Source of the DNA: Xiphophorus maculatus
Taxonomy: Eukaryota > Chordata > Actinopteri > Cyprinodontiformes > Poeciliidae
Reading direction: 5' to 3'
DNA: 64,000 nt
Assembly (NCBI RefSeq): GCF_002775205.1
Contig: NC_036465.1
Span: 518,638 to 582,637, forward strand
Below the pieces are notes generated by a model. It made no database searches and was not told the DNA's origin. It saw only the letters and a program-made list of their open reading frames with translations. Position 1 is the first letter of the stretch, and every line of letters begins with the position of its first letter. The translations under genes and the position numbers were made by a program. This document shows positions 7,201-40,101 of this stretch, one piece after another.

Positions 7201-10200
7201 TTGGCGTCATTGTTTCCCTTCTATGAACCATGGTTACCTCGAAAGAAACACGTGCAGTCATCATTGCACTGCACAAAAATGGCCTAACAGGAAAGAGAAT
7301 CGCAGCTAGAAAGATTGCACCTCAGTGAACAATCTATCGCATCATCAAGAACTTCAAAGAGAGGTTCCATTGTTGCCAAAAAGGCTCCAGGGCGCCCAAG
7401 AAAGACCAGCAAGCGCCAGGACCGTCTCTTAAAAGTGTTTCAGCTGCTGGATCGGGCTACCAGCAGTGCAGAGCTTGCTCAGGAATGGCAGCAGGCAGGT
7501 GTGAGTGCATCTGCACACACTGTGAGGCGGAGACTCTTGGAGCAAGGCCTGGTCTCCAGGAGGGCAGCAAAGAAGCCACTTCTCTCCATGAAAAACATCA
7601 GGGACAGACTGATATTCTGCAAAAGGTACAGGGAGTGGACTGCTGAGGACTGGGGTAAAGTCATTTTCTCTGATGAATCCCCTTTCCGATTGTTTGGGAC
7701 ATCTGGAAAACAGCTTGTTCGGAGAAGACGAGGTGAGCGCTACCACCAGTCTTGTCTCATGCCAACTGTAAAGCATCCTGAAACCATTCATGTGTGGGGT
7801 TGCTTCTCAGCCAAGGGAGTCGGCTCTCTCACAGTCTTACCTAAAAACACAGCCATGAATAAAGAATGGTACCAGAATGTCCTCCGAGAGCAACTTCTCC
7901 CAACCGTCCAAGAGCAGTTTGGTGATGAACAATGCCTTTTCCAGCATGATGGAGCACCTTGCCATAAAGCAAAGGTGATATTTAACTGGCTCAGGGAACA
8001 AAACATAGAGATTTTGGGTCCATGGCCTGGAAACTCCCCTGATCTTAATGCCATTGAAAACTTGTGGTCAATCATCAAGAGACGGGTGGACAAACGAAAA
8101 CCTAGGAATTCTGACAAAATGCAAGCATTGATTGTGCAAGAATGGACTGCTATCAGTCAGGACTTGGTCCAGAAATTGATTGAGAGCATGCCAGGGAGAA
8201 TTGCAGAGGTCCTGAAGAAGAGGGGTCAACACTGCAAATATTGACTTGCTGCATTAACTCATTCTAACTGTCATTAAAAGCTTTTGTTACTCATAATATG
8301 ATTGCAATTGTATTTCTGTATGTTATGACATCATCTGACATACACACATGAAAACCAGAGGGCAGCAGATCATGTGAAAATATAATATTTGTGTCATTCT
8401 CAATACTTTTGGCCATGACTGTACAATGAATGAAAGTCAATGCAAAGTCCTCAGTTGGATGGAAGTACAAGGTTGTGTGTGTTCTGAACATGAACTCCTG
8501 CATGAGTGAACCTGTTTCAGTTCTCTGTAGGTTAGCAATATCTAAGAGCAGGAAGTGAGTGTGATGGATCTCTGCAGGATGTCCAGGGGAAGTTCTGCAC
8601 CAGTGTCCAGTCTGGGCTGATCAAAACCTGGTTGGCTAGCAGAGCCAGTGTGCTACGGATCTGTTAGACCAGGGGTCTCAAACTCCAGTCCTCGAGGGCT
8701 GCAGTCCTGCAACTTTTAGATGTGCCTCTGCTGCACCACCTGAATAGAATAATTAGGTCATTAAGGCTCTGGAGAACTGATCTACACAAGGAGGAGGTCA
8801 TTAAGTCATTTCATTCCAGTGTTTTGTACCTGTGGCTCATCTAAAAACTGCAGGACTGCAGCCCTCGAGGCCTGGAGTTTGAGACCCCTGTGTTAGACCC
8901 AGCCTGACCTGCTGCATGAACTCCTCTACGGACCCCCGGCTTTGGCTCTCTAACATCTCCTCCCCTCTGCAGGTGAACGTCCCTTCAAGTGTGAGAGCTG
9001 CAGCTACCTGGCAGCCAATCAGCACGAAGTGACCCGTCACGCCCGCCAGGTCCACAACGGTCCCAAGCCTCTGTCCTGCCCCTACTGTGAGTACAAGACG
9101 GCCGACCGCAGCAACTTTAAGAAGCATGTGGAGCTGCACCTGAACCCACGGCAGTTCCTCTGCCCGCTCTGCAAGTACGCCGCTTCCAAGAAGTGCAACC
9201 TGCAGTACCATATCAAGTCCCGGCACTCCGGCTGCAACGTGGACCTGGATGTGTCCAAAGTCAAGCTGCGAGTGAAGAAACCCGGTCAGGACGGTGCAGA
9301 CGACAAGTCGGAGTTAAAAGCAGCCAAGCTGGATGACTCCCCCACCATGGAGGACGATGTGGACGAGGAAGACGACTCGAGCCCCATCAATCTGTCCATC
9401 AGGAGTAGCAGCAGACCCAGCATCAAACTGCCACAGCTGAGTGAGATTCCCGACAAGACTGCAAAGAAACGCAACTCCATGTCTGAGAAGGAGAGACCTG
9501 TAAAGGCAAAGGAAGCGGAAAAGAAAGTCTCAACAAGGCAGAAGAAGGTCAAGGAGAATCCTGTGGAGAACAGGGACGGTAAAGAAGTCCAGACTGCTGC
9601 TGGGAATACTGATGTCAAAGTGAAGAGACGGGTGAGGAAAGTTCTTACTGGGAAACCAGTTTCCCAGGACCAACCAGAAGAACCTGCATCCCAGGAAAAA
9701 CAACCAGTGGGACCCGCTTCCCAGGAAGACCAGTCTGATCCACAGAGTTCTGACCAGCAGAAATGTAAAGACAGAGACTTGAAGGTGAGTTCCCACAAGG
9801 AGAGCAAGAAAAGCCTCAGCAAAACCAGAAAGTCTGAAGCCTTAAAGACTCCAGAACAAACTGAGACACAGAAACCCATCAGTCCTGAGAAGAGTCAGAA
9901 AGGAAAGTGGGTCAAAGAAAAACCCGCTAAAAGGAAAGCAGGACAAATTCTGGATCTATCCCAAAAGTCCTCCAAGAAAAAGTGCCTGAAAGCTCCTGCT
10001 GCCAAGAAGCTGCTGTCCAAAACATCTTCGGATAGTACCAACGAGTCCAGTCCGACTGAAAAGACTATCAGAGAGGCACCATCCAAGCAGAGAAAGACCA
10101 GGACCTCCACCAGGAAGACCTCAGCAGTTGGTCCAAAACCAGATGAATCGATCTCTGAAACCAGTCCGTCCTTAGAGGCTATGAAAGGTTCTGTTCAGCC

Positions 10201-11683: not shown

Positions 11684-14098
11684 CATTTCATACCGACCCG
11701 ACCCGACCCGTCTCAGTGAGCTGCACATAAACCATTAAATGTTTGGTTGCAACCGTTGAGCTGCCAGGTGGGTCAGCAGGTTCTGTGGATCTGAAGGAGG
11801 GTGGACGATGTGATGTCCAGGTTTTAGGCCTCCAGTCTGCGTTTAGAACCAGTCCTAAGCCTGGATAACATCCATGTTAGCCTGAGTTCATCCAGATGAT
11901 GAGGTTGGACTGTTTAAAACTTGACACCAGTTTAAACCAGTTCAAACCAGTTAAGGTTTAAACTGGTGACTGCAGAGGAACTGAGCTGTCAGCAGGAGGT
12001 GCTGTTGGCTCGGATGAAGTCCAGGTTCGGACACCCTCCAACCTCTAGTTCTAGTTGTTTTTTTCCTTCTGGGACGTCGGAGTTTCCCAGTTCCGACCAC
12101 AACTGGAAGGCAGCATGAAGGTGAAAAGTGATTCTGCTTTACTGCAGAAGACCCGGTGTTCTGTTCTGGAACGTTCTTAATTCAGATTCTGAGCAGAACC
12201 TTGTCTTTCGTTCTGAGAAATATGTAAATAAGGAACCAAGAAGATCTGCAAAAACATTCTTGCAGTGTCCTGCTCCGCTTCGATGCTAATTATACGCATC
12301 AGACACTCAAGGAATGAAACAGATTGGTCAATTTCAGTATTCTGATTATTTTATCGAAGCTCGAACAAAACTTTGAAATGGAGTTGAAATACATGGTTTT
12401 GAACAACCATAACATTTGCATCACTGCAGTACGTCGGATTCAGCCAGCAGTCCCACGAGCTACCGGCCCTTTTCTGCGGCCAATCCAAGACATGAGTCCA
12501 TGCAGGAACATCAGAGAGGCAGAGACACAAACAGAACTGTAGATATTGTAATGAAATGTTTGTGGCTGAAAATGACAGGAGAGAAAAACATTTAGTTTGT
12601 GTTTTTCAGCCTTTTGAGAGCCGTGGCTCCTGTTTGACTGGAAAGTGAAACATGAAGCTGAATGCAGGTCTGGACAGAGAGACGGAGTTATGAGAGAGGA
12701 GCTGTTAGAGCTGAAAAGCATCATTTTAATTATGTTTGTGGCCAAACTGTTGCACTGATGTAGAGAGCTGTTCAAGAAGAACCAAACTTATTTTGAGACT
12801 TTGTTTTTGTTGGTCAAACTGCTGAACTGAGTTCAAACCTGCTGAGACCCATTTACTCTGTTTGTTACTTTACAAGAGGCAGAATCAGGTCAATTTCCAG
12901 TCAACTGATATCAACGCATTTTTGACCAATAATCAAATGTATTTCGACCAATAAAATCTATCAGAATCTGGTAGCTTGTGTGCTAGCAGAGTATTTATCT
13001 GGCTGGTTGTGAGGCAAACCATAAAGTTTAGTGTTCATCCTGGAATGATGCTGATTAAAGACGGGAGCCATTTTGTTCAAGAGGAAATGAAGACGATGTT
13101 TTTTTGGGCAGTTTGCCACCTTGAGATCATAAGACATAAACACACATATGATATATATTCTAGTTAATTTATGAGCAGCGACGGCATAGTTACTTTGAAA
13201 AGTAATTTGATTACTCAATGAAAAATCCATCAGTTAGAAAATGTGCATCTTTCTTTAGCCTCCATGGTTTGTCGCTGGTGTTAAACCAAACGTAACTCCC
13301 CAAGGAAAGAGAAGAAAGCAACAATGTGTGTTTACTAAAAACATTACAAATATTAACACACAGTGACTTGGATACATAACTTTAATCTGATTATTGGATT
13401 GTAAATAGGAACACGTTACATTACACGTTACAAGGGGTCAGAGTAGAGTAACGCGTTGATGACGTCACTGTTGGACATTTCTGCTCCGACTCTTCACTGC
13501 CAGGTTTCCGTTGTGTTCATGTGGCCCGGAGACACGCGCGCATTCCGCCAGCAGAGGGCGCCATTCAGCTGCTCGGTTCCGGTTCGAACTACATTTAGTT
13601 CCTCAGAGGATGAAGCAGAGCTGCAGGTTGCTCTCCACGCTCCAAGGATTTCCACACATCTGGGACCAGGCTTATTATATTTTTATTAAGTAAACATATA
13701 TAAGTTCATTTGATTTTTGTTATCCTAATAAGTAGATTTGAAGTTAGTATTATATTGTACCTTAAGACCTTTAGGCTCTTTATTGGGGTCTTGGCTCATT
13801 TTCTGACTGTGATATAATCTTTCTAAGATTAACAGCCTTTAGAGAATCAACTTAATTTTCCTGGGTTTTATTTCCTCCTTTGTTTCTGTTTCTTCTCCTC
13901 CAGCTGCTCCTGCTGTTCATTCAAACTATTTCTGCTCAGAGAGAAACTGCTGCCTTACATTCGGTCATAAAACATTCATTATCCAGGAACCAAAATATTC
14001 TTTATTGGATCTGATCTGCTGGTAGCAGAAGATTCATCCTGTAAACATGGAGTCGTTTGTGTAAACAGTGAGATCAGGACAAAACAAACAGACAAGCA
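11684..14098. other. intergenic, no gene; degenerate repeat near 13185-13450
   Basis: There is no conserved coding block. At 13185-13450 words such as GTTACTTTGAAAAGTAA and ACGTTACATTACACGTTAC recur in both orientations, resembling the AGTAAC-rich dispersed repeats common in fish genomes. I could not set its ends. The rest is unremarkable AT-rich DNA. Confidence 0.4.
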
Positions 14099-14814
14099 GA
14101 ACCTACAGAACCTGCAGAACCTGAAGAACCTAAAGAACCTGAAGAACCTAAATAACCTGAAGAACCTACAGAACCTAAAGAACCTGAAGAACCTACAGAA
14201 CCTGAAGAACCTACAGAACCTAAAGAACCTGCAGAACCTACAGAACCTGAAGAACCTACAGAACCTGTAGAACCTACAGAACCTGCAGAACCTACAGAAC
14301 CTGAAGAACCTGCAGAACCTACAGAACCTGTAGAACCTAAAGAACCTGCAGAACCTACAGAACCTGAAGAACCTACAGAACCTAAAGAACCTACAGAACC
14401 TAAAGAACCTGCAGAACCTGCAGAACCTGTAGAACCTAAAGAACCTGCAGAACCTACAGAACCTGAAGAACCTACAGAACCTGTAGAACCTACAGAACCT
14501 GTAGAACCTAAAGAACCTGCAGAACCTACAGAACCTGAAGAACCTGCAGAACCTACAGAACCTGTAGAACCTAAAGAACCTGCAGAACCTACAGAACCTG
14601 TAGAACCTACAGAACCTGAAGAACCTACAGAACCTAAAGAACCTGCAGAACCTACAGAACCTGTAGAACCTAAAGAACCTGCAGAACCTACAGAACCTGA
14701 AGAACCTACAGAACCTAAAGAACCTACAGAACCTAAAGAACCTGCAGAATCTACAGAACCTGTAGAACCTGTAGAACCTGCAGAACCTACAGAACCTGTA
14801 GAACCTGTAGAACC
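14099..14814. repeat. minisatellite, 9-bp unit GAACCTACA
   Basis: About 80 tandem copies of GAACCTNNA, where the variable pair is mostly AC, GC, GA, AA or GT. Because 9 is a multiple of 3, each frame is periodic. On the minus strand this gives a 251-codon Gly-Ser-x open frame, which is a repeat artefact. The unit shares the AGAACC core that is frequent across the whole window. Confidence 0.96.
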
Positions 14815-15939: not shown

Positions 15940-16231
15940 TTTATTCACTTTATAAAAAAGAACTTAAGCGAAAATCATATTTAGAAGAACCGATTTTCAT
16001 CAGGAAAGTTCTGATGCAGAGGAGCGACCCGAAGGTCCGAATACAGAACATAAAACTCATCAGCAGAAACAACCTGTAACCCTGCCCTTCAAAATAAAAG
16101 TAAGAGAAAATCATAATAAATGATTCAATGTTTAAAATCAGACAAAAACGTTACATTTCTCATGAGTTCAAAGGTTAAAATATATGAGCAAGAAACAGAA
16201 AAGTCTGAAGTTGATGAAGTCGGTCGTGTGA

Positions 16232-19200
16232 TCACAGCGGCTCGTCCTTCATCCCTGAAACGAGAACAAACCTCCAGTCAGAGATTTACACCCAGCTGTA
16301 GACAGGAAGTCCTGGACAGTTTCCTGTCCACAGCTTCCTCTCCAGGACTTCCTGTCTACAGCTTCCTGTCTACAGCTTCCTGTCTACAGCTTCCTGTCCA
16401 CAGCTTCCTGTCCACAGCTTCCTGTCCTCAGTTTCCTGTCCTCAGCTTCCTGTCTACAGCTTCCTGTCCACAGCTTCCTGTCTACAGCTTCCTGTCCTCA
16501 GTTTCCTGTCTACAGCTTCCTGTCTACAGTTTCCTGTCCACAGCTTCCTCTCCAGGACTTCCTGTCTACAGCTTCCTGTCTACAGCTTCCTGTCCACAGT
16601 TTCCTGTCTACAGCTTCCTGTCCACAGCTTCCTGTCTACAGCTTCCTGTCTACAGCTTCCTGTCCTCAGTTTCCTGTCCTCAGCTTCCTGTCTACAGCTT
16701 CCTGTCCACAGTTTCCTGTCTACAGCTTCCTGTCCACAGCTTCCTGTCTACAGCTTCCTGTCTACAGCTTCCTGTCTACAGTTTCCTGTCCACAGCTTCG
16801 TCTCCAGGACTTCCTGTCCTCAGTTTCCTGTCCACAGCTTCCTGTCTACAGCTTCCTGTCCACAGCTTCCTGTCTACAGCTTCCTGTCCACAGCTTCCTG
16901 TCTACAGCTTCCTGTCCACAGCTTCCTGTCTACAGCTTCCTGTCCACAGCTTCATGTCTACAGCTTCCTGTCCTCAGCTTCCTGTCTACAGCTTCCTGTC
17001 CTCAGCTTCCTGTCCACAGCTTCCTGTCTACAGCTTCCTGTCCTCAGCTTCCTGTCCACAGCTTCCTGTCTACAGCTTCCTGTCTACAGCTTCCTGTCCT
17101 CAGCTTCCTGTCCACAGCTTCCTGTCTACAGATTCCTGTCTACAGCTTCCTGTCCACAGCTTCCTGTCCTCAGCTTCATGTCTACAGCTTCCTGTCCTCA
17201 GCTTCCTGTCCACAGCTTCCTGTCTACAGCTTCCTGTCCACAGCTTCCTGTCTACAGCTTCCTGTCTACAGCTTCCTGTCTACAGCTTCCTGTCCACAGC
17301 TTCCTGTCCACAGCTTCCTGTCTACAGCTTCCTGTCTACAGCTTCCTGTCCACAGCTTCCTGTCTACAGCTTCCTGTTCACAGCTTCCTGTCTACAGCTT
17401 CCTGTCTACAGCTTCCTGTCCACAGCTTCCTGTCCACAGCTTCCTGTCTACAGCTTCCTGTCCACAGCTTCCTGTCTACAGCTTCCTGTCCTCAGCTTCC
17501 TGTCTACAGCTTCCTGTCCAGGACTTACTGTCTACAGCTTCCTGCCTACAGCTTCCTGTCCACAGCTTCCTGTCTACAGCTTCCTGTCTACAGCTTCCTG
17601 TCCACAGCTTCCTGTCTACAGCTTCCTGTCCACAGCTTCATGTCTACAGCTTCCTGTCCTCAGCTTCCTGTCTACAGCTTCCTGTCTACAGCTTCCTGTC
17701 TACAGCTTCCTGTCCACAGCTTCCTGTCCACAGCTTCCTGTCTACAGCTTCCTGTCTACAGCTTCCTGTCTACAGCTTCCTGTCCTCAGCTTCCTGTCCA
17801 CAGCTTCCTGTCTACAGCTTCCTGTCCACAGCTTCCTGTCCTCAGCTTCCTGTCTACAGCTTCCTGTCTACAGCTTCCTGTCCTCAGCTTCATGTCTACA
17901 GCTTCCTGTCCTCAGCTTCCTGTCCTCAGCTTCCTGTCTACAGCTTCCTGTCTACAGCTTCCTGTCTACAGCTTCCTGTCCTCAGCTTCCTGTCCTCAGC
18001 TTCCTGTCCACAGCTTCCTGTCCTCAGCTTCCTGTCTACAGCTTCCTGTCTACAGCTTCCTGTCCTCAGCTTCATGTCTACAGCTTCCTGTCCTCAGCTT
18101 CCTGTCTACAGCTTCCTGTCTACAGCTTCCTGTCTACAGCTTCCTGTCCTCAGCTTCCTGTCCTCAGCTTCCTGTCCACAGCTTCCTGTCTACAGCTTCC
18201 TGTCTACAGCTTCCTGTCTACAGTTTCCTGTCCACAGCTTCGTCTCCAGGACTTCCTGTCCTCAGTTTCCTGTCCACAGCTTCCTGTCTACAGCTTCCTG
18301 TCTACAGTTTCCTGTCCTCAGCTTCCTGTCTACAGCTTCCTGTCTACAGCTTACTATCCTCAGCTTCCTGTCTACAGCTTCCTGTCTACAGTTTCCTGTC
18401 CTCAGCTTCCTGTCTACAGCTTCCTGTCTACAGCTTACTATCCTCAGCTTCCTGTCTACAGCTTCCTGTCTACAGCTTCCTGTCCACAGCTTCCTGTCCT
18501 CAGCTTCATGTCTACAGCTTCCTGTCCTCAGCTTCCTGTCTACAGCTTCCTGTCTACAGCTTCCTGTCCTCAGCTTCCTGTCTACAGCTTCCTGTCTACA
18601 GCTTCCTGTCCTCAGCTTCCTGTCTACAGCTTCCTGTCCACAGCTTCCTGTCTACAGCTTCCTGTCCACAGCTTCCTGTCTACAGCTTCCTGTCCACAGC
18701 ATCCTGTCTACAGCTTCCTGTCTACAGCTTCCTGTCCACAGCTTCCTGTCTACAGCTTCCTGTCTACAGCTTCCTGTCTACAGCTTCCTGTCCACAGCTT
18801 CCTGTCCTCAGCTTCCTGTCCACAGCTTCCTGTCTACAGCTTCCTGTCTACAGCTTCCTGTCTACAGTTTCCTGTCCACAGCTTCGTCTCCAGGACTTCC
18901 TGTCCTCAGTTTCCTGTCCACAGCTTCCTGTCTACAGCTTCCTGTCTACAGTTTCCTGTCCTCAGCTTCCTGTCTACAGCTTCCTGTCTACAGCTTACTA
19001 TCCTCAGCTTCCTGTCTACAGCTTCCTGTCTACAGCTTCCTGTCCTCAGCTTCCTGTCCTCAGCTTCCTGTCCACAGCTTCCTGTCCTCAGCTTCCTGTC
19101 TACAGCTTCCTGTCTACAGCTTCCTGTCCTCAGCTTCATGTCTACAGCTTCCTGTCCTCAGCTTCCTGTCTACAGCTTCCTGTCTACAGCTTCCTGTCTA

Positions 19201-22200
19201 CAGCTTCCTGTCCTCAGCTTCCTGTCCTCAGCTTCCTGTCCACAGCTTCCTGTCTACAGCTTCCTGTCTACAGCTTCCTGTCTACAGTTTCCTGTCCACA
19301 GCTTCGTCTCCAGGACTTCCTGTCCTCAGTTTCCTGTCCACAGCTTCCTGTCTACAGTTTCCTGTCCTCAGCTTCCTGTCTACAGCTTCCTGTCTACAGC
19401 TTACTATCCTCAGCTTCCTGTCTACAGCTTCCTGTCTACAGCTTCCTGTCCTCAGCTTCATGTCTACAGCTTCCTGTCCTCAGCTTCCTGTCCTCAGCTT
19501 CCTGTCTACAGCTTCCTGTCTACAGCTTCCTGTCCTCAGCTTCCTGTCCTCAGCTTCCTGTCCACAGCTTCCTGTCCTCAGCTTCCTGTCTACAGCTTCC
19601 TGTCTACAGCTTCCTGTCCTCAGCTTCATGTCTACAGCTTCCTGTCCTCAGCTTCCTGTCTACAGCTTCCTGTCTACAGCTTCCTGTCTACAGCTTCCTG
19701 TCCTCAGCTTCCTGTCCTCAGCTTCCTGTCCACAGCTTCCTGTCTACAGCTTCCTGTCTACAGTTTCCTGTCCACAGCTTCCTGTCTACAGCTTCCTGTC
19801 TACAGCTTCCTGTCCTCAGCTTCCTGTCCTCAGCTTCCTGTCCACAGCTTCCTGTCCTCAGCTTCCTGTCTACAGCTTCCTGTCTACAGCTTCCTGTCCT
19901 CAGCTTCATGTCTACAGCTTCCTGTCCTCAGCTTCCTGTCTACAGCTTCCTGTCTACAGCTTCCTGTCTACAGCTTCCTGTCTACAGTTTCCTGTCCACA
20001 GCTTCGTCTCCAGGACTTCCTGTCCTCAGTTTCCTGTCCACAGCTTCCTGTCTACAGCTTCCTGTCTACAGTTTCCTGTCCTCAGCTTCCTGTCTACAGC
20101 TTCCTGTCTACAGCTTACTATCCTCAGCTTCCTGTCTACAGCTTCCTGTCTACAGCTTCCTGTCCTCAGCTTCCTGTCTACAGCTTCCTGTCTACAGCTT
20201 CCTGTCCTCAGCTTCATGTCTACAGCTTCCTGTCCTCAGCTTCCTGTCCTCAGCTTCCTGTCTACAGCTTCCTGTCTACAGCTTCCTGTCCTCAGCTTCC
20301 TGTCCTCAGCTTCCTGTCCACAGCTTCCTGTCCTCAGCTTCCTGTCTACAGCTTCCTGTCTACAGCTTCCTGTCCTCAGCTTCATGTCTACAGCTTCCTG
20401 TCCTCAGCTTCCTGTCTACAGCTTCCTGTCCTCAGCTTCCTGTCCTCAGCTTCCTGTCCACAGCTTCCTGTCTACAGCTTCCTGTCTACAGCTTCCTGTC
20501 TACAGTTTCCTGTCCACAGCTTCGTCTCCAGGACTTCCTGTCCTCAGTTTCCTGTCCACAGCTTCCTGTCTACAGCTTCCTGTCTACAGTTTCCTGTCCT
20601 CAGCTTCCTGTCTACAGCTTCCTGTCTACAGCTTACTATCCTCAGCTTCCTGTCTACAGCTTCCTGTCTACAGCTTCCTGTCCTCAGCTTCATGTCTACA
20701 GCTTCCTGTCCTCAGCTTCCTGTCCTCAGCTTCCTGTCTACAGCTTCCTGTCTACAGCTTCCTGTCTACAGCTTCCTGTCCTCAGCTTCCTGTCCTCAGC
20801 TTCCTGTCCACAGCTTCCTGTCCTCAGCTTCCTGTCCACAGCTTCCTGTCCTCAGCTTCCTGTCCACAGCTTCCTGTCTACAGCTTCCTGTCTACAGCTT
20901 CCTGTCTACAGTTTCCTGTCCACAGCTTCGTCTCCAGGACTTCCTGTCCTCAGTTTCCTGTCCACAGCTTCCTGTCTACAGCTTCCTGTCTACAGTTTCC
21001 TGTCCTCAGCTTCCTGTCTACAGCTTCCTGTCTACAGTTTCCTGTCCTCAGCTTCCTGTCTACAGCTTCCTGTCTACAGCTTACTATCCTCAGCTTCCTG
21101 TCTACAGCTTCCTGTCCACAGCTTCCTGTCCTCAGCTTCATGTCTACAGCTTCCTGTCCTCAGCTTCCTGTCTACAGCTTCCTGTCCTCAGCTTCCTGTC
21201 TACAGCTTCCTGTCTACAGCTTCCTGTCCTCAGCTTCCTGTCTACAGCTTCCTGTCCACAGCTTCCTGTCCACAGCTTCCTGTCTACAGCTTCCTGTCCA
21301 CAGCATCCTGTCTACAGCTTCCTGTCTACAGCTTCCTGTCCACAGCTTCCTGTCTACAGCTTCCTGTCCACAGCTTCCTGTCTACAGCTTCCTGTCTACA
21401 GCTTCCTGTCTACAGTTTCCTGTCCACAGCTTCGTCTCCAGGACTTCCTGTCCTCAGTTTCCTGTCCACAGCTTCCTGTCTACAGCTTCCTGTCTACAGT
21501 TTCCTGTCCTCAGCTTCCTGTCTACAGCTTCCTGTCTACAGTTTCCTGTCCTCAGCTTCCTGTCTACAGCTTCCTGTCTACAGCTTACTATCCTCAGCTT
21601 CCTGTCTACAGCTTCCTGTCCACAGCTTCCTGTCCTCAGCTTCATGTCTACAGCTTCCTGTCCTCAGCTTCCTGTCTACAGCTTCCTGTCCTCAGCTTCC
21701 TGTCTACAGCTTCCTGTCTACAGCTTCCTGTCCTCAGCTTCCTGTCTACAGCTTCCTGTCCACAGCTTCCTGTCCACAGCTTCCTGTCTACAGCTTCCTG
21801 TCCACAGCATCCTGTCTACAGCTTCCTGTCTACAGCTTCCTGTCCACAGCTTCCTGTCTACAGCTTCCTGTCCACAGCTTCCTGTCTACAGCTTCCTGTC
21901 TACAGCTTCCTGTCTACAGCTTCCTGTCCACAGCTTCCTGTCCACAGCTTCCTGTCTACAGCTTCCTGTCCACAGCTTCCTGTCTACAGCTTCCTGTCTA
22001 CAGCTTCCTGTCCACAGCTTCCTGTCTACAGCTTCCTGTCCACAGCTTCCTGTCTACAGCTTCCTGTCTACAGCTTCCTGTCCACAGCTTCCTGTCCACA
22101 GCTTCCTGTCTACAGCTTCCTGTCCACAGCTTCCTGTCTACAGCTTCCTGTCCTCAGCTTCCTGTCTACAGCTTCCTGTCCAGGACTTACTGTCTACCGC

Positions 22201-25200
22201 TTCCTGTCTAGAGCTTCCTGTCCTCAGCTTCCTGTCTACAGCTTCCTGTCTACAGCTTCCTGTCCAGGACTTACTGTCTACCGCTTCCTGTCTAGAGCTT
22301 CCTGTCCTCAGCTTCCTGTCTACAGCTTCCTGTCCACAGCTTCCTGTCCTCAGCTTCCTGTCCACAGCTTCCTATCCTCAGCTTCCTGTCTACAGCTTCC
22401 TGTCCTCAGCTTCCTGTCCACAGCTTCCTATCCTCAGCTTCCTGTCTACAGCTTCCTGTCCTCAGCTTCCTGTCTACAGCTTCCTGTCCACAGCTTCCTG
22501 TCCAGGACTTACTGTCTACAGCTTCCTGTCTACAGCTTCCTGTCCAGGACTTACTGTCTACAACTTCCTGCCTACAGCTTCCTGTCCACAGCTTCCTGTC
22601 TACAGCTTCCTGTCTACAGCTTCCTGTCCTCAGCTTCCTGTCCACAGCTTCCTGTCTACAGCTTCCTGTCCTCAGCTTCCTGTCCACAGCTTCCTGTCCA
22701 CAGCTTCCTGTCTACAGCTTCCTGTCTACAGCTTCCTGTCCTCAGCTTCCTGTCTACAGCTTCCTGTCTACAGCTTCCTGTCCACAGCTTCCTGTCCTCA
22801 GCTTCATGTCTACAGCTTCCTGTCCTCAGCTTCCTGTCTACAGCTTCCTGTCTACAGCTTACTGTCCTCAGCTTCCTGTCCTCAGCTTCCTGTCCACAGC
22901 TTCCTGTCCTCAGCTTCCTGTCTACAGCTTCCTGTCCACAGCTTCCTGTCCACAGCTTCCTGTCTACAGCTTCCTGTCCACAGCTTCCTGTCTACAGCTT
23001 CCTGTCCACAGCTTCCTGTCTACAGCTTCCTGTCCACAGCATCCTGTCTACAGCTTCCTGTCTACAGCTTCCTGTCCACAGCTTCCTGTCTACAGCTTCC
23101 TGTCCACAGCTTCCTGTCTACAGCTTCCTGTCCTCAGCTTCCTGTCTACAGCTTCCTGTCCACAGCTTCCTGTCCACAGCTTCCTGTCTACAGCTTCCTG
23201 TCCACAGCTTCCTGTCTACAGCTTCCTGTCTACAGCTTCCTGTCCACAGCTTCCTGTCTACAGGTTCCTGTCCACAGCTTCCTGTCTACAGGTTCCTGTC
23301 CACAGCTTCCTGTCTACAGCTTCCTGTCCTCAGCTTCCTGTCTACAGCTTCCTGTCTACAGCTTACTGTCCTCAGCTTCCTGTCCTCAGCTTCCTGTCCA
23401 CAGCTTCCTGTCCTCAGCTTCCTGTCTACAGCTTCCTGTCCACAGCTTCCTGTCCACAGCTTCCTGTCTACAGCTTCCTGTCCACAGCTTCCTGTCTACA
23501 GCTTCCTGTCCACAGCTTCCTGTCTACAGCTTCCTGTCCACAGCATCCTGTCTACAGCTTCCTGTCTACAGCTTCCTGTCCACAGCTTCCTGTCTACAGC
23601 TTCCTGTCCACAGCTTCCTGTCTACAGCTTCCTGTCCTCAGCTTCCTGTCTACAGCTTCCTGTCCACAGCTTCCTGTCCACAGCTTCCTGTCTACAGCTT
23701 CCTGTCCACAGCTTCCTGTCTACAGCTTCCTGTCTACAGCTTCCTGTCCACAGCTTCCTGTCTACAGGTTCCTGTCCACAGCTTCCTGTCTACAGGTTCC
23801 TGTCCACAGCTTCCTGTCTACAGCTTCCTGTCCTCAGCTTCCTGTCTACAGCTTCCTGTCCAGGACTTACTGTCTACCGCTTCCTGTCTACAGCTTCCTG
23901 TCCTCAGCTTCCTGTCTACAGCTTCCTGTCCTCAGCTTCCTGTCCACAGCTTCCTATCCTCAGCTTCCTGTCTACAGCTTCCTGTCCTCAGCTTCCTGTC
24001 CACAGCTTCCTGTCCTCAGCTTCCTGTCCACAGCTTCCTATCCTCAGCTTCCTGTCTACAGCTTCCTGTCCTCAGCTTCCTGTCCACAGCTTCCTATCCT
24101 CAGCTTCCTGTCTACAGCTTCCTGTCCACAGCTTCCTGTCTACAGCTTCCTGTCTACAGCTTCCTGTCCTCAGCTTCCTGTCTACAGCTTCCTGTCTACA
24201 GCTTCCTGTCCTCAGCTTCCTGTCCTCAGCTTCCTGTCTACAGCTTTCTGTCCTCAACTTCCTGTCCACAGCTTCCTGTCCACAGCTTCTTGTCTACAGC
24301 TTCCTGTCCTCAGCTTCCTGTCTACAGCTTTCTGTCCTCAACTTCCTGTCCACAGCTTCCTGTCCACAGCTTCTTGTCTACAGCTTCCTGTCCTCAGCTT
24401 CCTGTCCACAGCTTCCTGTCCTCAGCTTCCTGTCTACAGCTTTCTGTCCTCAACTTCCTGTCCACAGCTTCCTGTCCTCAGCTTCCTGTCTACAGCTTCC
24501 TGTCTACAGCTTCCTGTCTACAGCTTCCTGTCCACAGCTTCCTGTCCTCAGCTTCCTGTCTACAGCTTCCTGTCCTCAGCTTCCTGTCCACAGCTTTCTG
24601 TCCTCAGCTTCCTGTCCACAGCTTCCTGTCCTCAGCTTCCTGTCTACAGCTTCCTGTCCACAGCTTCCTGTCCACAGCTTCCTCTCTACAGCTTCTTGTC
24701 TACAGCTTCCTGTCCTAAGCTTCCTGTCCACAGCTTCAGTAGACGACGACGTCAGAGTTCTGGTTACCTGAATTGAGGATGATGTCATCGACGGACCGGA
24801 CCAGGTGGACGCCTCCGATGGCCGACGCTTCGCCTCTGGAGTTGGCGGCGTGACACTCGTAGGATCCTTCTTCTTCTTCAGTCAGCGGGGAGATCTGAGG
24901 GCAGAGCCACAGATCTGATTGGTCCATTAGGGTGATGACATCACCAGAGGAACACCAGGGGTCAACCTGCCGCTGACCCTAGGGGTCAACCTGAGGTCAC
25001 TGACCAGAACCCAGCCCGTCACTTGGTGCTTCTCCGGTCCGCCTCGGGTCTGGACGGCCAGGTTGTCCCGATCGCCAGGTAGAAGCTCCGCCCTCTTTCT
25101 GCCGCCAAGCACCTGGGAATCATCATCATTATCATCATCATCATCATCAGTCCAGACAGGTCAGTGTGAAGCGGCTCACCTTCTTCCAGGTGAGGACAGG

Positions 25201-27784
25201 TGTGGGCACGCCCACCGCCTCGCAGCTCAGGAACACCTGGGAGCCGCTGAGGTTGAACACCTGGCCTGGAGGCGTCACTATGGAGGGAGCTGCAGACAGA
25301 GATCGGGTCAGGACCAGAGGCGTAAATACAGGAGGGCTCGGGGGTCCGGACCCCCAATCTTGGGAAAGTCTAGAATTGTCCCCTCCAAAAAAATAATTGA
25401 AGAAACTTTTGCATTTAAATAATATCGATATGAAAAGGCAAAAGAAACAAAAAACAAAAAAATCTGCCATTTATCTCAGAAAAAAATAATAATTAATTTT
25501 TAGTCCCCCCCCCCCATTATTAGAACAATGATTCAGTCCAAAGTGTGGGAGGAGCAACAGCTGAATGGTACCGGCTCCGTTAGAGCCGCTGGAGGGAGGA
25601 GCTAGCTGTTAGCTGCTAGCTAGCTGTTAGCTGCTAGCTGTGGCTCTGCAGCACAAATAAAAACCCTCCAGTCAGTAAATACTTCAAGCAAAAGACATAT
25701 AAACATTTTATTTACTTTCACTGCTCAATAAGAAGAAACTCATGAACAATAAAAATCATTCTGCAGTTTGTTATTTCATTACTTTGACTGAATCATCATA
25801 AGCTGCCTTATTAGCAAAACTGCTACACTGCTTTCATAGATTTAACCTTTGACCTTTTTTGTCAAAGGCAGCAAACATCTCATTCATATTTAGCTCTTTA
25901 ACTTTTAGTTAATCAGAAGAGTTTGAAACTGGAGGAGGGTCTGAGGAAGTGAAGCAGCTCAGAGTTGGAGCCCAGAACAGATAGAAAAAACTAAAGTTAT
26001 GTTTTTATTTCTCACTGTCTTCAATGTAGGACGGATCTACGGATCCCTGTAGGGGACATGGGGAGTTTTTTCTTTTGCGTTCCCTCGCAATAATCTACTG
26101 GTCAGTTATGCAGCATAATTGAATCCTGTAGCCTTTCTTACGGTGGGCGCCGTACTTTATGCTTTAATATAAGGTTATGTGAGGTTTTTCCATGAATGTT
26201 AGAATCTTTTAGTGAAATATCTGAAGTTTTATATCTTTCTTTAGGATAGAAAGGCGCCACAAACCTACGATATAAACAGAAACTTTCCGTAAGTAGGAAA
26301 GAAATAAAAACACATTATAATTTGGACTATTTCTGAGTTATTATAGCGGGTAATAAATCATCTGACAGTTTTGATTGTGTCTCTGTTGTTCTAGTCTGAA
26401 TGGTTTAAAGAGCTGCTTTCAGTGCCGCTCCATCTTAGCCTTAACAGACATAAACATGCAGGAAAAAATAAATTGATTTTCAATCAGTTTTAAACTTCAG
26501 ATATTTCACTAAAAGATTCTAACATTCATGGAAAAACCTCACATAACCTTATATTAAAGCATAAAGTACGGCGCCCACCGTAATAAAGGCTACAGGATTC
26601 AATTATGCTGCATAACTGACCAGTAGATTATTGCGAGGGAACAAAAGACATTTTTCCCACGTTCCCTCAGGACTCCGTCATTTTTGGTCCTGCGGTTTGA
26701 ATAGATGAAAAACTTTTTAAACTACATTTTGCGTTACATTTCACTGGAACTTCGCCGAACCCGCAAAATTGGTCTTAAGAAATGTTCCTGTTCATGTTCC
26801 CAAAATAATGAGATGGGATTTAAGCCCTTGGTCAGGACAGAACCTGAATAGAACCCAACCAGAACCGACCCGTGACCCGGCAGTAATGTTCTGAGCGCCT
26901 CAGTGAGCCGCTAATCTGGCTCGGAATGGAAAAGAAATTATCAGAGAGAAGCCGAGCCAGACGGAGGTACTGCCGGCCCAGAACCACCGGACCGGACCGG
27001 ACTGGACGGCACCGAAACTGAGGGCTGCAATGGAGTGAGAACACCTGGAGAAACATCTGGATGAAGAAGATTCCTCCATCTGGAGAAAAATCCCACCGGA
27101 TTACAGCCAGATTAATAATCTGAGCTGGAAAAACAGTTCAGTAATAATAATAATAATAACAACAACAACAGGTACGTGAAGGTTTCATTGATATTCTAAT
27201 TTATTGATTATCTATACTTATTGTACTTATTGGTTTCTTACAGTTTATATAAAAAACTTTGATTCAAATGTTTTTTGCTGGTGAAAAACTTTCCTCTAAG
27301 TTATTTGTATTATTTTTTTTCGTTTTAATCTTTGAAATATCAGAACATTGATAACCTGCGGTCCGTCTCACCTGAGGCGCAGCGGCCTTTGTTCTGCACG
27401 CTGATTGGCTCCCTGCCGCGCCGCTGCGCCGCCATGTTGGCGCTCCTCAGGGCGCAGCCGCTCCTGTACGTGGTTCCGTCGGATCCGCACACCTGGTAGT
27501 TGGTCTTGCACGCGCACACGCCGGTTTTGCTCCGCTTGTCGTCGCCGCTCCTGTCGCACTCCATCCCGGGGCCGCAGCGGCGCGCCGCCGCACGGCTCGC
27601 CCTCCGCAGCGGCGCACACCGCGCAGCAGCCGCAGGAGTCCCGCAGCGAGCCGCCGGGGCAGCCCGCAGCCGGGAGAGGAGCGCATCCCGCCGGGTCACA
27701 CGGAGCACAGCCCGACCCGGCCCGCAGAACCGGAACCAGAACCAGCAGCGGCAGCAGGAGCAGCGAGAGGCGGCAGGACGTCAT
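16232..27784 (-). CDS. igfbp7: insulin-like growth factor-binding protein 7
   Basis: Five coding exons, 5' to 3': 27784-27372, 25289-25180, 25112-25005, 24894-24768 and 16254-16232. The product is a secreted extracellular-matrix protein that binds insulin/IGF weakly and modulates growth signalling. Exon 1 encodes a signal peptide (SLLLLPLLVLVPVL), the cysteine-rich IGFBP domain with the GCGCC-type motif (CGCCAVC) and a Kazal-like region (CGSDGTTYRSGC). Exons 2-4 encode one Ig domain, with ELLPGDRDNLAVQTRGGPEK and YECHAANS nearly identical to human IGFBP7. Exon 5 is 23 nt, coding MKDEPL after the split Gly, and rests on a good acceptor (TTCTCGTTTCAG) and matching phase. Exon 1 has one base too many at about 27578-27590: Gly-Gly after EPC is in one frame and CGPGMECD in the next, and total length is 781 nt. 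An assembly error in GC-rich DNA is likeliest. Intron 4 is nearly all minisatellite. Confidence 0.93.
16318..24738. repeat. giant 14-bp minisatellite filling igfbp7 intron 4
   Basis: About 600 tandem copies of CTTCCTGTCTACAG, spanning some 8.4 kb. Common variants are CTTCCTGTCCACAG and CTTCCTGTCCTCAG. Rarer marker units include AGGACTTCCTG, ACTATCC, TTCGTCTCC and CATGTC types. The array takes up all but about 90 bases of the 8,513-base final intron of igfbp7 (24767-16255, minus strand). The plus-strand unit contains no stop codon in any phase, so all three frames stay open for thousands of bases with a 14-residue period (three units, 42 nt). Marker units recur in blocks, showing larger duplications of 504 and 84 bp. 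There are no unique spacers, so it is not a CRISPR-like array. Confidence 0.98.
26076..26645. mobile_element. fold-back element with ~155-bp inverted arms in igfbp7 intron 1
   Basis: The left arm (about 26076-26230) and right arm (about 26491-26645) are near-exact reverse complements over about 155 bases. The outer end reads GTTCCCTCGCAATAATCTAC and the inner end reads GAAATATCTGAAGTTT. A 260-bp centre lacks coding capacity. Long inverted arms with an empty middle mark a non-autonomous DNA transposon. The flanking target duplication is unclear to me, so I leave the superfamily open. Confidence 0.75.
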
Positions 27785-37420: not shown

Positions 37421-38352
37421 TTCTGTAGAGTAATAGAAACCCAGTGAAACAGAGCTGCAATGTTTCTCCCTTCCTCTTCATCTTGCCGTTGAAGTGATGA
37501 GTATCTTCATAAAATACTCAAATTGACCTAAATTAAACATTTTTGATTACCAAAATTATGACTAGCTGATGACACCACAAACTGGTTCCCTTTATTAGAA
37601 ATCGTTTCTAATGAAGGGAAATAGTTTCTGGTTTTGTCTCCCCAAAGGTTTGTTTAAAAACTGGATGCATAGATTTTGTTCTTAGATGTGACTTTGGTGT
37701 CGACAGACTTCCTGTTAAGTGATCTGCCTCTTCTGAACATGAACAGCTTCACTCCTCACCAAACTCCATCTGGAGCAGCAGAGATGAGCTGCAGGAATAA
37801 TTCTCTGTGTTCGCATCGCTGGATGGAAAATTGGTCCACAAGACATTTTCTAAATGATAATGGAGATTGGTTGAGGAACTTGGCTTATAATCTGGACCGC
37901 TCACTCTGAACTCTGACCCCTCTGTCAGCTAACCTTCAGTTACTTCAACTGTTTGGATCTAAAAAGTTACAAAAGTAACAAACAGATGAGTCAGCTTCTA
38001 ACTAACTTTATATTTAACTAACTATATTTATATATATGTTTTTATATTTTTCTATCTAACTTTATATTTCCTGTCTGACCAAATAAAAACTCAATTTTAA
38101 ATTTGTTTCCTGGTTCAGAGGTTAATAAGTGGAGAACTGCTGACCTTAAATCTCCTCTAAAGCTAAAAAAGTTCATTAAAATCCTCAATAATGTTTTTCC
38201 ATCCAGGGAATTTTTACCACAAAGATTCAACTTTGACACCAACAGATGGACCTTTTGGGGAAACTTTCAGGTCTGGATCTCAACTAAACTCTTCCTGCCT
38301 CACCTCTTAAAAACAGAGGATGTAACATTTGTAACATCCATCCTCCCCCCCA

Positions 38353-40101
38353 GTGGGTGAAGTTGATGCTGACTTTCTAAATGGACTCAATAACTTCTTT
38401 GGGAGGTTCGAGGCACTGAACAGTACTCCGGCAAAGAAAACTGTTCCCCACCAGGAAGAGGAGGCACTCTGCCTGGACACAGCCGATGTGTTGAAGACTC
38501 TGAAAAGAGTCAACCCACGGAAGGCCCCAGGCCCCGACAACATACCTGGGCGGGTGTTCAGGGAATGCGCAGGTCAGCTGGCTGGTGTCCTAACAGACAT
38601 TTTTAACACCTCACTGGACCAAGCCACAGTGCCAGCCTGTCTCAAAACTGCCTCCATCATTCCGGTGCCAAAGAAACCTCAAGTCACCTCTTTCAACGAT
38701 TACCGGCCTGTGGCACTGACTCCCATCATGATGAAGTGCTTTGAAAGGCTGGTAAAAGAACACATCGTCTCCAGACTCCCCTCCACATTCGACCCGTTCC
38801 AGTTTGCCTACCGCCGAAACTGCTCCACTGAGGACGCCATCTCCTCCGCCCTACACCTGAGCCTGGCTCACCTGGAGGAGAAGAACAATCATGTGCGGAT
38901 GTTGTTCCTGGACTTCAGCTCAGCGTTCAACACAATCATCCCACAGCATCTGGCAGGAAAACTGGGACACCTGGGCTTCAGCACCCCCCTGCGCAACTGG
39001 CTGCTAGACTTCCTCACCGACAGACCTCAGTCAGTCCGGATCGGACAACACACCTCCGATGTCATCACCCTCAGCACAGGCTCCCCTCAGGGCTGCGTCC
39101 TGAGCCCTCTGCTGTTCACTCTGATGACACACGACTGCGCCCCCAGGTTCGCCACCAACCACATCGTGAAGTTCGCGGACGACACAACGGTGGTGGGCCT
39201 CATCAGAGACGACAACGACCTGGACTACAGAGAGGAGGTGGAGCAGCTGGTGGACTGGTGCAGAGACAACAGCCTGATCCTGAACGTTGACAAGACGAAG
39301 GAGATGATCGTCGACTTCAGGAAGAACCGGCCCAGCCACGCTCCACTGCTCATCAACAGCTCGGCTGTGGAGGTGGTCAGCAGCACCAAATTCCTGGGGG
39401 TGCACATCACAAACGACCTCACCTGGACTGTGACCACCACGTCTCTGGTCAAGAGGGCACAGAAACGCTTGTATTTCCTGCGGAGGATGAGAAGAGCACA
39501 CCTGCCCCCGCCCATCCTCAAGACGTTCTACAGAAGCACCATAGAGAGCATTCTGACCAGCTGCCTCTCTGTGTGGTGTGGAGGCTGCAGCGCCTCCGAC
39601 TGGAAGAACGTGAGGAGAGTGGTGCGGACAGCAGAGAGGATCATCGGGGCCCCCCTTCCCTCCATTCAGGACATTTCATCCCAGCGCTGCGTGTCCCGAG
39701 GCCGAAACATCGTCAGTGACCCCTCACACCCCCACCATGGACTGTTCTCCCTGCTGCCCTCTGGAAAGAGGTTCTGCAGCATCTGGTGCAGGTCCACCTG
39801 GTTCTGAAACAGCTTTTTCCCACTTGCCATCAGACTGCTGAACTCTTAACTGGACTGCACTTAAAATCTGGTCTCCACTTCATACCTTGCACATGTACAG
39901 AGCTAAATAACTTCTATTTTACTGTCAGTCCTGCACTTTATATTTTATATTTATATTTTATACTGTATTTTATTTTATTCTGGAGTAACCTCACAATTGA
40001 AAGCTCAAAACATTGTCCTGAGCCGTATGCAACCAAATTTCGTTCTGTATTCACCCTGTGCATGCAAAATGACAATAAAGTCAGTCTAAGTCTAAGTCTA
40101 A
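38353..40101 (+). mobile_element. 5'-truncated L2-group LINE with near-complete reverse transcriptase
   Basis: A 484-codon open frame (38353-39807) holds the reverse transcriptase: [43 protein letters not shown] (first catalytic Asp), [14 protein letters not shown] and FADDTTVV (catalytic DD). The thumb and C-terminal region ends in [15 protein letters not shown] at 39805-39807 interrupts the last coding block; the same frame then continues NSFFPLAIRLLNS to a natural stop. The endonuclease domain is missing, so this is a 5'-truncated copy. The 3' end reads TGACAATAAAG followed by short repeats of AGTCTA, as in L2-type elements. The long intact frame suggests a fairly recent insertion. Confidence 0.85.

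What the first reader, a model, noticed from the sequence alone, without database searches (positions are those of the whole stretch)
16255..24767. An 8.4-kb 14-bp minisatellite makes up nearly the whole last intron of igfbp7
The array of about 600 units is bounded by splice sites of igfbp7: the donor of exon 4 (GT at 24767-24766) and the acceptor of a 23-nt exon 5 (AG at 16256-16255). On the transcribed strand each unit reads CTGTAGACAGGAAG, so the pre-mRNA carries hundreds of CAG|GAAG acceptor-like sites before the true one. Array length could therefore affect splicing of the C-terminal residues. The exon positions and array are seen directly; any splicing effect is inference.
Basis: partly seen in the sequence, partly recalled or inferred. 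Interest (0 to 1): 0.8.

Follow-up and report, generated by a model that had tools for sequence, protein, structure and literature searches.

The report
Minisatellite-filled last intron of igfbp7
In this fish genome the last intron of the growth-factor-binding gene igfbp7 is almost entirely an 8.4-kb run of a 14-letter repeat, most likely a harmless one-off expansion inside a once tiny intron, facing the way that looks least disruptive to RNA splicing.

Summary
Window 16316-24737 is 601 consecutive 14-nt units in one unbroken register, 27 unit types, filling 98.9% of the 8,513-bp last intron of igfbp7. Exons 2-5 read as one frame matching human IGFBP7. The intron splits the glycine after which the human chain has five residues and the fish protein six. 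In the 704-Mb genome the two-unit pattern is found only here: 510 of 510 matches at up to 3 mismatches. Growth in place, in an intron whose other DNA is 91 bp, is the likely origin.

The proposed decoy acceptors are not supported. On the transcribed strand the units lack a pyrimidine tract: 0 of 1,585 array AGs score above 5 on an approximate, recalled acceptor matrix, and the true acceptor ranks 1 of 1,597. The opposite strand is the acceptor-like one (590 of 595). One inverted unit at the 3' edge puts a single acceptor-like site in sense, 41 nt before the real one, inside a perfect 23-bp hairpin.

Best reading: an ordinary single-locus minisatellite, spliced out with its intron, in the splice-quiet orientation. 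Kb-scale arrays are not freakish here: 1 of 20 sampled 10-kb stretches is nearly all array.

The parts
16316..24737 (-). 14-bp minisatellite array, 601 full units, sense consensus CTGTAGACAGGAAG, unbroken register, 27 unit types
16255..24767 (-). igfbp7 intron 4 (GT...AG), 8,513 bp, 98.9% array
16294..16316 (+). inverted copy of unit sequence at the 3' edge of the array; in sense it reads as an acceptor-like site (first exon base would be 16295)
16341..16363 (-). array segment perfectly complementary (23 of 23) to 16294-16316; predicted hairpin
16232..16254 (-). coding part of igfbp7 exon 5 (end of ...NSG, then MKDEPL and stop)
15940..15945 (-). AATAAA, likely igfbp7 poly(A) signal
24768..24894 (-). 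igfbp7 exon 4
25005..25112 (-). igfbp7 exon 3 (donor CTG|GTCAGT)
25180..25289 (-). igfbp7 exon 2
27372..27784 (-). igfbp7 exon 1 coding part (IGFBP and Kazal domains; reading frame changes inside it)
16278..16278 (-). candidate branch-point A (CTGAC), 23 nt before the end of the intron; the only yUnAy match in the last 75 nt of the intron
   Evidence: position worked out from its distance
20853..21919 (-). 504-bp (36-unit) block duplicated in tandem; exact 563-bp match at 504-bp spacing
22807..23860 (-). second 504-bp tandem block duplication; exact 550-bp match at 504-bp spacing

Best explanation
A single-locus minisatellite grew in place inside a very small (about 90-bp) last intron of igfbp7, by slippage of the 14-bp unit and by duplication of blocks of tens of units. 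It is transcribed and removed with the intron. The sense strand is purine-rich and offers the spliceosome no pyrimidine tract, no consensus branch point and none of the four poly(A) hexamers searched, so exon 4 joins exon 5 across 8.5 kb through one strong acceptor with a well-placed branch-point motif. Shown here: sequence, gene model, absence of the two-unit pattern elsewhere in the genome, strand asymmetry of the signals. Inferred: in-place growth, transcription and correct removal, and that orientation is why the array is tolerated.
For: 601 units in one register, with long exact internal repeats (563 and 550 bp at 504-bp spacing; shuffling unit order gave at most 180 bp in 20 shuffles). 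The unit pair is found nowhere else in 704 Mb: 510 of 510 matches at up to 3 mismatches. Non-array intron is 91 bp, beside introns 2 and 3 of 67 and 110 bp (intron 1 is 2,082 bp). Human IGFBP7 aligns up to the split glycine (71 of 115 aligned fish residues identical); the human chain has five residues after it, the fish protein six. True acceptor ranks 1 of 1,597 AGs and true donor 1 of 483 GTs. Sense array 0 of 1,585 AGs above 5; antisense 590 of 595; rest of window 341 of 3,975 (+) and 474 of 3,785 (-). In 1 of 20 sampled 10-kb stretches nearly the whole stretch is another array.
Against: No RNA data: splicing of this intron is inferred. The acceptor and donor matrices are approximate and recalled. 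16 donor-like sites scoring 5 or more (best 7.03 against 7.12 for the true donor) lie in the array in sense, so the sense strand is not free of all splice signals. The array RNA is predicted to fold strongly (one 281-nt piece -87.7 kcal/mol against -57.1 for shuffles), which could affect processing. Exon 1 shows a reading-frame change in this assembly, so this copy may be erroneous or damaged. Orientation tolerance rests on one array; no other genic array was tested against its gene's strand. Single or more diverged units elsewhere in the genome were not sought.
Confidence: 0.82

Rival explanations
1. The array regulates splicing in a length-dependent way: slow transcription, R-loops or GGA-rich RNA that binds SR proteins such as SRSF1 favour retention of intron 4. 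Retention would end the protein as ...NSGNQNSDVVVY.
For: Sense array has 102.4 GGA per kb against 20.2 (+) and 18.0 (-) in the rest of the window; GGA is the RRM2 motif of SRSF1 (PMC7813835, passages). GC skew on the + strand is about -0.45 through most of the array, so the sense strand is G-rich. The retention frame stops at 24738-24736. A human intronic VNTR is reported to shift TERT isoforms (PMC11830802, abstract).
Against: Motif density follows from repeating one purine-rich unit. The array has no run of three G (the only GGG of the intron is at 16293, outside it), so the TERT G-quadruplex route does not carry over. The preferred SRSF1 spacing of C and GGA was not tested. No RNA evidence.
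Confidence: 0.12
2. The inverted unit at the array edge is a usable alternative acceptor (exon start 16295), controlled by a hairpin with the array. Its use would give ...NSAGCKSLTGGLFSFQG instead of ...NSGMKDEPL.
For: It is the second-best acceptor-like AG of 1,597 in the region (6.53; introns 1-3 of the gene score 5.88, 3.36 and 6.47). Perfect 23-bp arms; local fold -67.3 kcal/mol, z -9.5. Alternative reading.
Against: No yUnAy branch-point motif in the array upstream of it. Sites of 6.5 or more are common, 189 (+) and 261 (-) in the other 55.4 kb. A plain piece of the array also folds far below shuffles (z -8.7), so strong structure is not special to the edge. The hairpin would hide the site.
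Confidence: 0.04
3. One reading: CAG|GAAG sites of the array compete with the true acceptor.
For: 502 CAG|GAAG sites in sense.
Against: Median score -3.6 and best 1.8 against 9.0 for the true site; longest pyrimidine run 4 nt; no yUnAy in the array.
Confidence: 0.02

Closest known systems
Intronic VNTRs such as TERT VNTR6-1 (PMC11830802, abstract seen)
   Same: Tandem repeat inside an intron of a protein-coding gene
   Different: Here a 14-bp unit, about 600 copies, filling nearly the whole intron; no runs of three G; no data on polymorphism or splicing
Satellite-filled giant introns of Drosophila Y genes kl-3 and kl-5 (PMC6508621, abstract seen)
   Same: Intron made almost wholly of tandem repeat and transcribed (transcription inferred here)
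   Different: 8.5 kb rather than megabases; a growth-factor-binding gene rather than a spermatocyte programme
C. elegans CeRep25B minisatellite near alternative splicing regions (PMC4039745, abstract seen)
   Same: Intronic minisatellite carrying motifs that could act in splicing
   Different: CeRep25B is over-represented near many alternative splicing regions; this repeat is at one locus
Orientation bias and weaker splice signals of intronic transposable elements near exons (PMC3088655, abstract and section 11 seen)
   Same: Repeat close to exons carrying few splice signals in sense
   Different: That is a genome-wide statistic on transposable elements; this is one minisatellite, so bias cannot be shown

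Membership tests
Intronic minisatellite | Head-to-tail units of minisatellite size | tested here: met
   601 units of 14 nt
Intronic minisatellite | Lies within an intron | tested here: met
   Between exons 4 and 5 of the model, C-terminus of human-like length; not confirmed by RNA
Intronic minisatellite | Copy number varies between individuals (VNTR) | not testable with these tools
   Only one assembly held; internal 504-bp duplications suggest instability
Dispersed satellite or transposon-derived repeat | Copies at other loci | tested here: not met
   510 of 510 two-unit matches at up to 3 mismatches lie in this array; single or more diverged units not sought
Splice-switching VNTR (TERT VNTR6-1 type) | G-quadruplex-forming runs of three G | tested here: not met
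   The only GGG of the intron in sense is at 16293, outside the array; two-G quadruplexes not tested
Splice-switching VNTR (TERT VNTR6-1 type) | Isoform ratio depends on allele length | not testable with these tools
   No RNA or allele data
Satellite-filled giant introns | Intron nearly all tandem repeat | tested here: met
   98.9% of the intron
Satellite-filled giant introns | Megabase scale | tested here: not met
   8.5 kb
IGFBP7 | IGFBP, Kazal and Ig domains in order | tested here: met
   PF00219, PF07648, PF13927/PF07679, the first two in different reading frames of exon 1
IGFBP7 | Closest solved relative is IGFBP7 | tested here: met
   9zhh_A 157.5 bits against 62.6 for the next

The most novel reading that the evidence does not exclude
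Splicing selection fixes the direction of the array. The unit is a strong 3' splice-site look-alike on one strand, so only the purine-sense orientation could grow to 600 copies in an intron; the single unit flipped at the 3' edge is a latent acceptor kept shut by pairing with the array, so array RNA acts as a built-in antisense lock on an alternative igfbp7 C-terminus.
Probability: 0.05. Interest if true: 0.65.

Novelty: new member of a known kind. Interest (0 to 1): 0.3.

Why it matters
It is a clean case of a tiny intron taken over almost entirely by a single-locus minisatellite, with strongly asymmetric splice signals. It suggests a simple genome-wide test: whether large intronic arrays sit preferentially in the strand orientation that lacks acceptor-like units. 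As a claim about igfbp7 regulation it is unproven and probably minor.

Tried and rejected
Decoy acceptors in sense: rejected on pyrimidine tract, branch point and score. Dispersed repeat family: rejected at the level of the two-unit pattern. Quadruplex of three-G runs: rejected, none in the array. Premature poly(A) in the intron: none of the four hexamers searched in sense. A protein coded by the + strand: the array is open on that strand (ORF 16120-24771, 2,883 aa), but a 14-nt unit without a stop opens all three frames by itself; 4 of 42 single changes of the unit create a stop, and 3 stops lie in the array, so openness carries no signal of coding. Exact two-unit pattern in viral contigs: none. 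Acceptor-like content of other arrays of the window (8 others scored): 14096-14814 is acceptor-like on the - strand (57 of 77 AGs above 5), the other seven have none above 5, so the trait is uncommon but not unique here. The INS paper PMC4081105 (passages) concerns a minisatellite upstream of the gene and was not used. Literature: searches listed no paper on this igfbp7 array (listings only, capped at 20 rows).
Full report
What is there. Tandem Repeats Finder places the array at 16316-24737. Read on the gene's strand and cut in a fixed register it is 601 units of 14 nt plus 4 nt at each end, in 27 unit types, and the phase of the anchor GACAGGAAG never changes (499 of 499). A free alignment lengthens 8 units and shortens 8 by one base at one variant unit, without shifting the register. 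Long exact internal repeats, 563 bp and 550 bp both at 504-bp spacing, show that blocks of 36 units were duplicated; order-shuffled units gave at most 180 bp in 20 shuffles. In register the two blocks share at most 15 of 36 units, like random block pairs (mean 15.3 over 436 pairs), so these are separate duplications.

The gene. The corrected exons 2-5 (25289-25180, 25112-25005, 24894-24768, 16254-16232) read through to the stop in one frame. Pfam finds IGFBP, Kazal and Ig domains and the best solved relative is human IGFBP7, 9zhh_A, 157.5 bits, the next being 62.6. The alignment runs to residue 277 of a 282-residue chain, which is the glycine that intron 4 splits here; 71 of 115 aligned fish residues are identical. 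After that glycine the human chain has five residues and the fish has six (MKDEPL). This is good evidence that exon 5 is real.

Uniqueness. The window lies in a 704-Mb genome of 101 contigs. A two-unit pattern matched 235 times in the genome and 235 times in the window; with up to 3 mismatches 510 and 510. At that level the array is private to this locus; single or more diverged units were not sought. The intron without the array is 91 bp, like introns 2 and 3 (67 and 110 bp) and unlike intron 1 (2,082 bp), which fits growth inside a minimal intron (inference). In 20 stretches of 10 kb, one at 5.0 Mb on each of contigs C1-C20, one (L038) is covered over 9,976 of its 10,000 bp by overlapping TRF rows of another repeat, and 2 of 49 merged arrays of period 7 or more reach 1 kb. 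Arrays of this size are thus not freakish here, though the sample is small.

Splice signals. With an approximate recalled acceptor matrix the true acceptor ranks first of 1,597 AGs (8.98). The 502 sense CAG|GAAG sites have a median of -3.6 and a best of 1.8; the longest pyrimidine run in the sense array is 4 nt and the array holds no yUnAy motif, while one such motif (CTGAC) lies 23 nt before the end of the intron. On the other strand 590 of 595 array AGs exceed 5, against 341 of 3,975 (+) and 474 of 3,785 (-) AGs in the rest of the window; in sense 0 of 1,585 do. Against a fully inert sense strand, 16 donor-like sites score 5 or more (best 7.03, true donor 7.12); no acceptor-like site above 5 lies upstream of them inside the array.

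The array edge. At 16294-16316 stands an inverted copy, perfectly complementary over 23 nt to the array at 16341-16363; the longest such match to the array among 2,000 random 65-mers from the rest of the window was 13 nt. The local RNA fold is -67.3 kcal/mol against -34.8 for shuffles, though a plain 281-nt piece of the array also folds well below its shuffles (-87.7 against -57.1). The inverted copy presents the second-best acceptor-like AG of the region (6.53), 41 nt before the true one, but no branch-point motif precedes it in the array, and sites of that strength are common. I take it as a fold-back scar (inference).

How it most likely works. It is spliced out with its host intron (inference). 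Length effects through elongation, R-loops or GGA-binding SR proteins are possible: the sense array has 102.4 GGA per kb against 20.2 and 18.0 elsewhere, and GGA is the SRSF1 RRM2 motif (PMC7813835, passages). Nothing here demonstrates such an effect.

Known kinds. Introns made of satellite are known in Drosophila (PMC6508621, abstract), and an intronic VNTR that shifts splicing in man (PMC11830802, abstract). Weaker splice signals in repeats near exons are described for transposable elements (PMC3088655, abstract and section 11). This is a new member of a known kind. Searches listed nothing on this locus.

Limits. One assembly, no RNA, no relatives, recalled matrices, and a reading-frame change inside exon 1 that may be an assembly error.

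Noticed in passing
27570-27600: Reading frame of igfbp7 exon 1 changes between the IGFBP domain (one frame) and the Kazal domain (next frame), in a GC-rich repeat-like stretch; assembly error or real damage.
   Followed up: partly
16120-24771: The + strand of the array is open as one ORF of 2,883 aa, and in the other two frames for most of its length; explained by a stop-free 14-nt unit.
   Followed up: yes
7288-8244: Open 318-aa Tc1-like transposase ORF (PF01498, PF13358) lying between zinc-finger exons of what looks like rest (gene name by recall).
   Followed up: no
38335-39807: Reverse transcriptase ORF of 490 aa; Pfam also calls ALKBH8_N in it, probably a domain model that picks up fish retrotransposons (recalled).
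   Followed up: no
14096-14814: 18-bp minisatellite downstream of the igfbp7 poly(A) signal, acceptor-like on the - strand (57 of 77 AGs above 5) and open in long ORFs.
   Followed up: no
L038:12-9987: A sampled stretch of contig C10 at 5.0 Mb is covered almost end to end by another tandem repeat (shortest TRF period 15); its full length is unknown.
   Followed up: partly
17528-23870: 16 donor-like sites scoring 5 or more in the sense array, six of them ACA|GTAAGT (score 7.03).
   Followed up: partly
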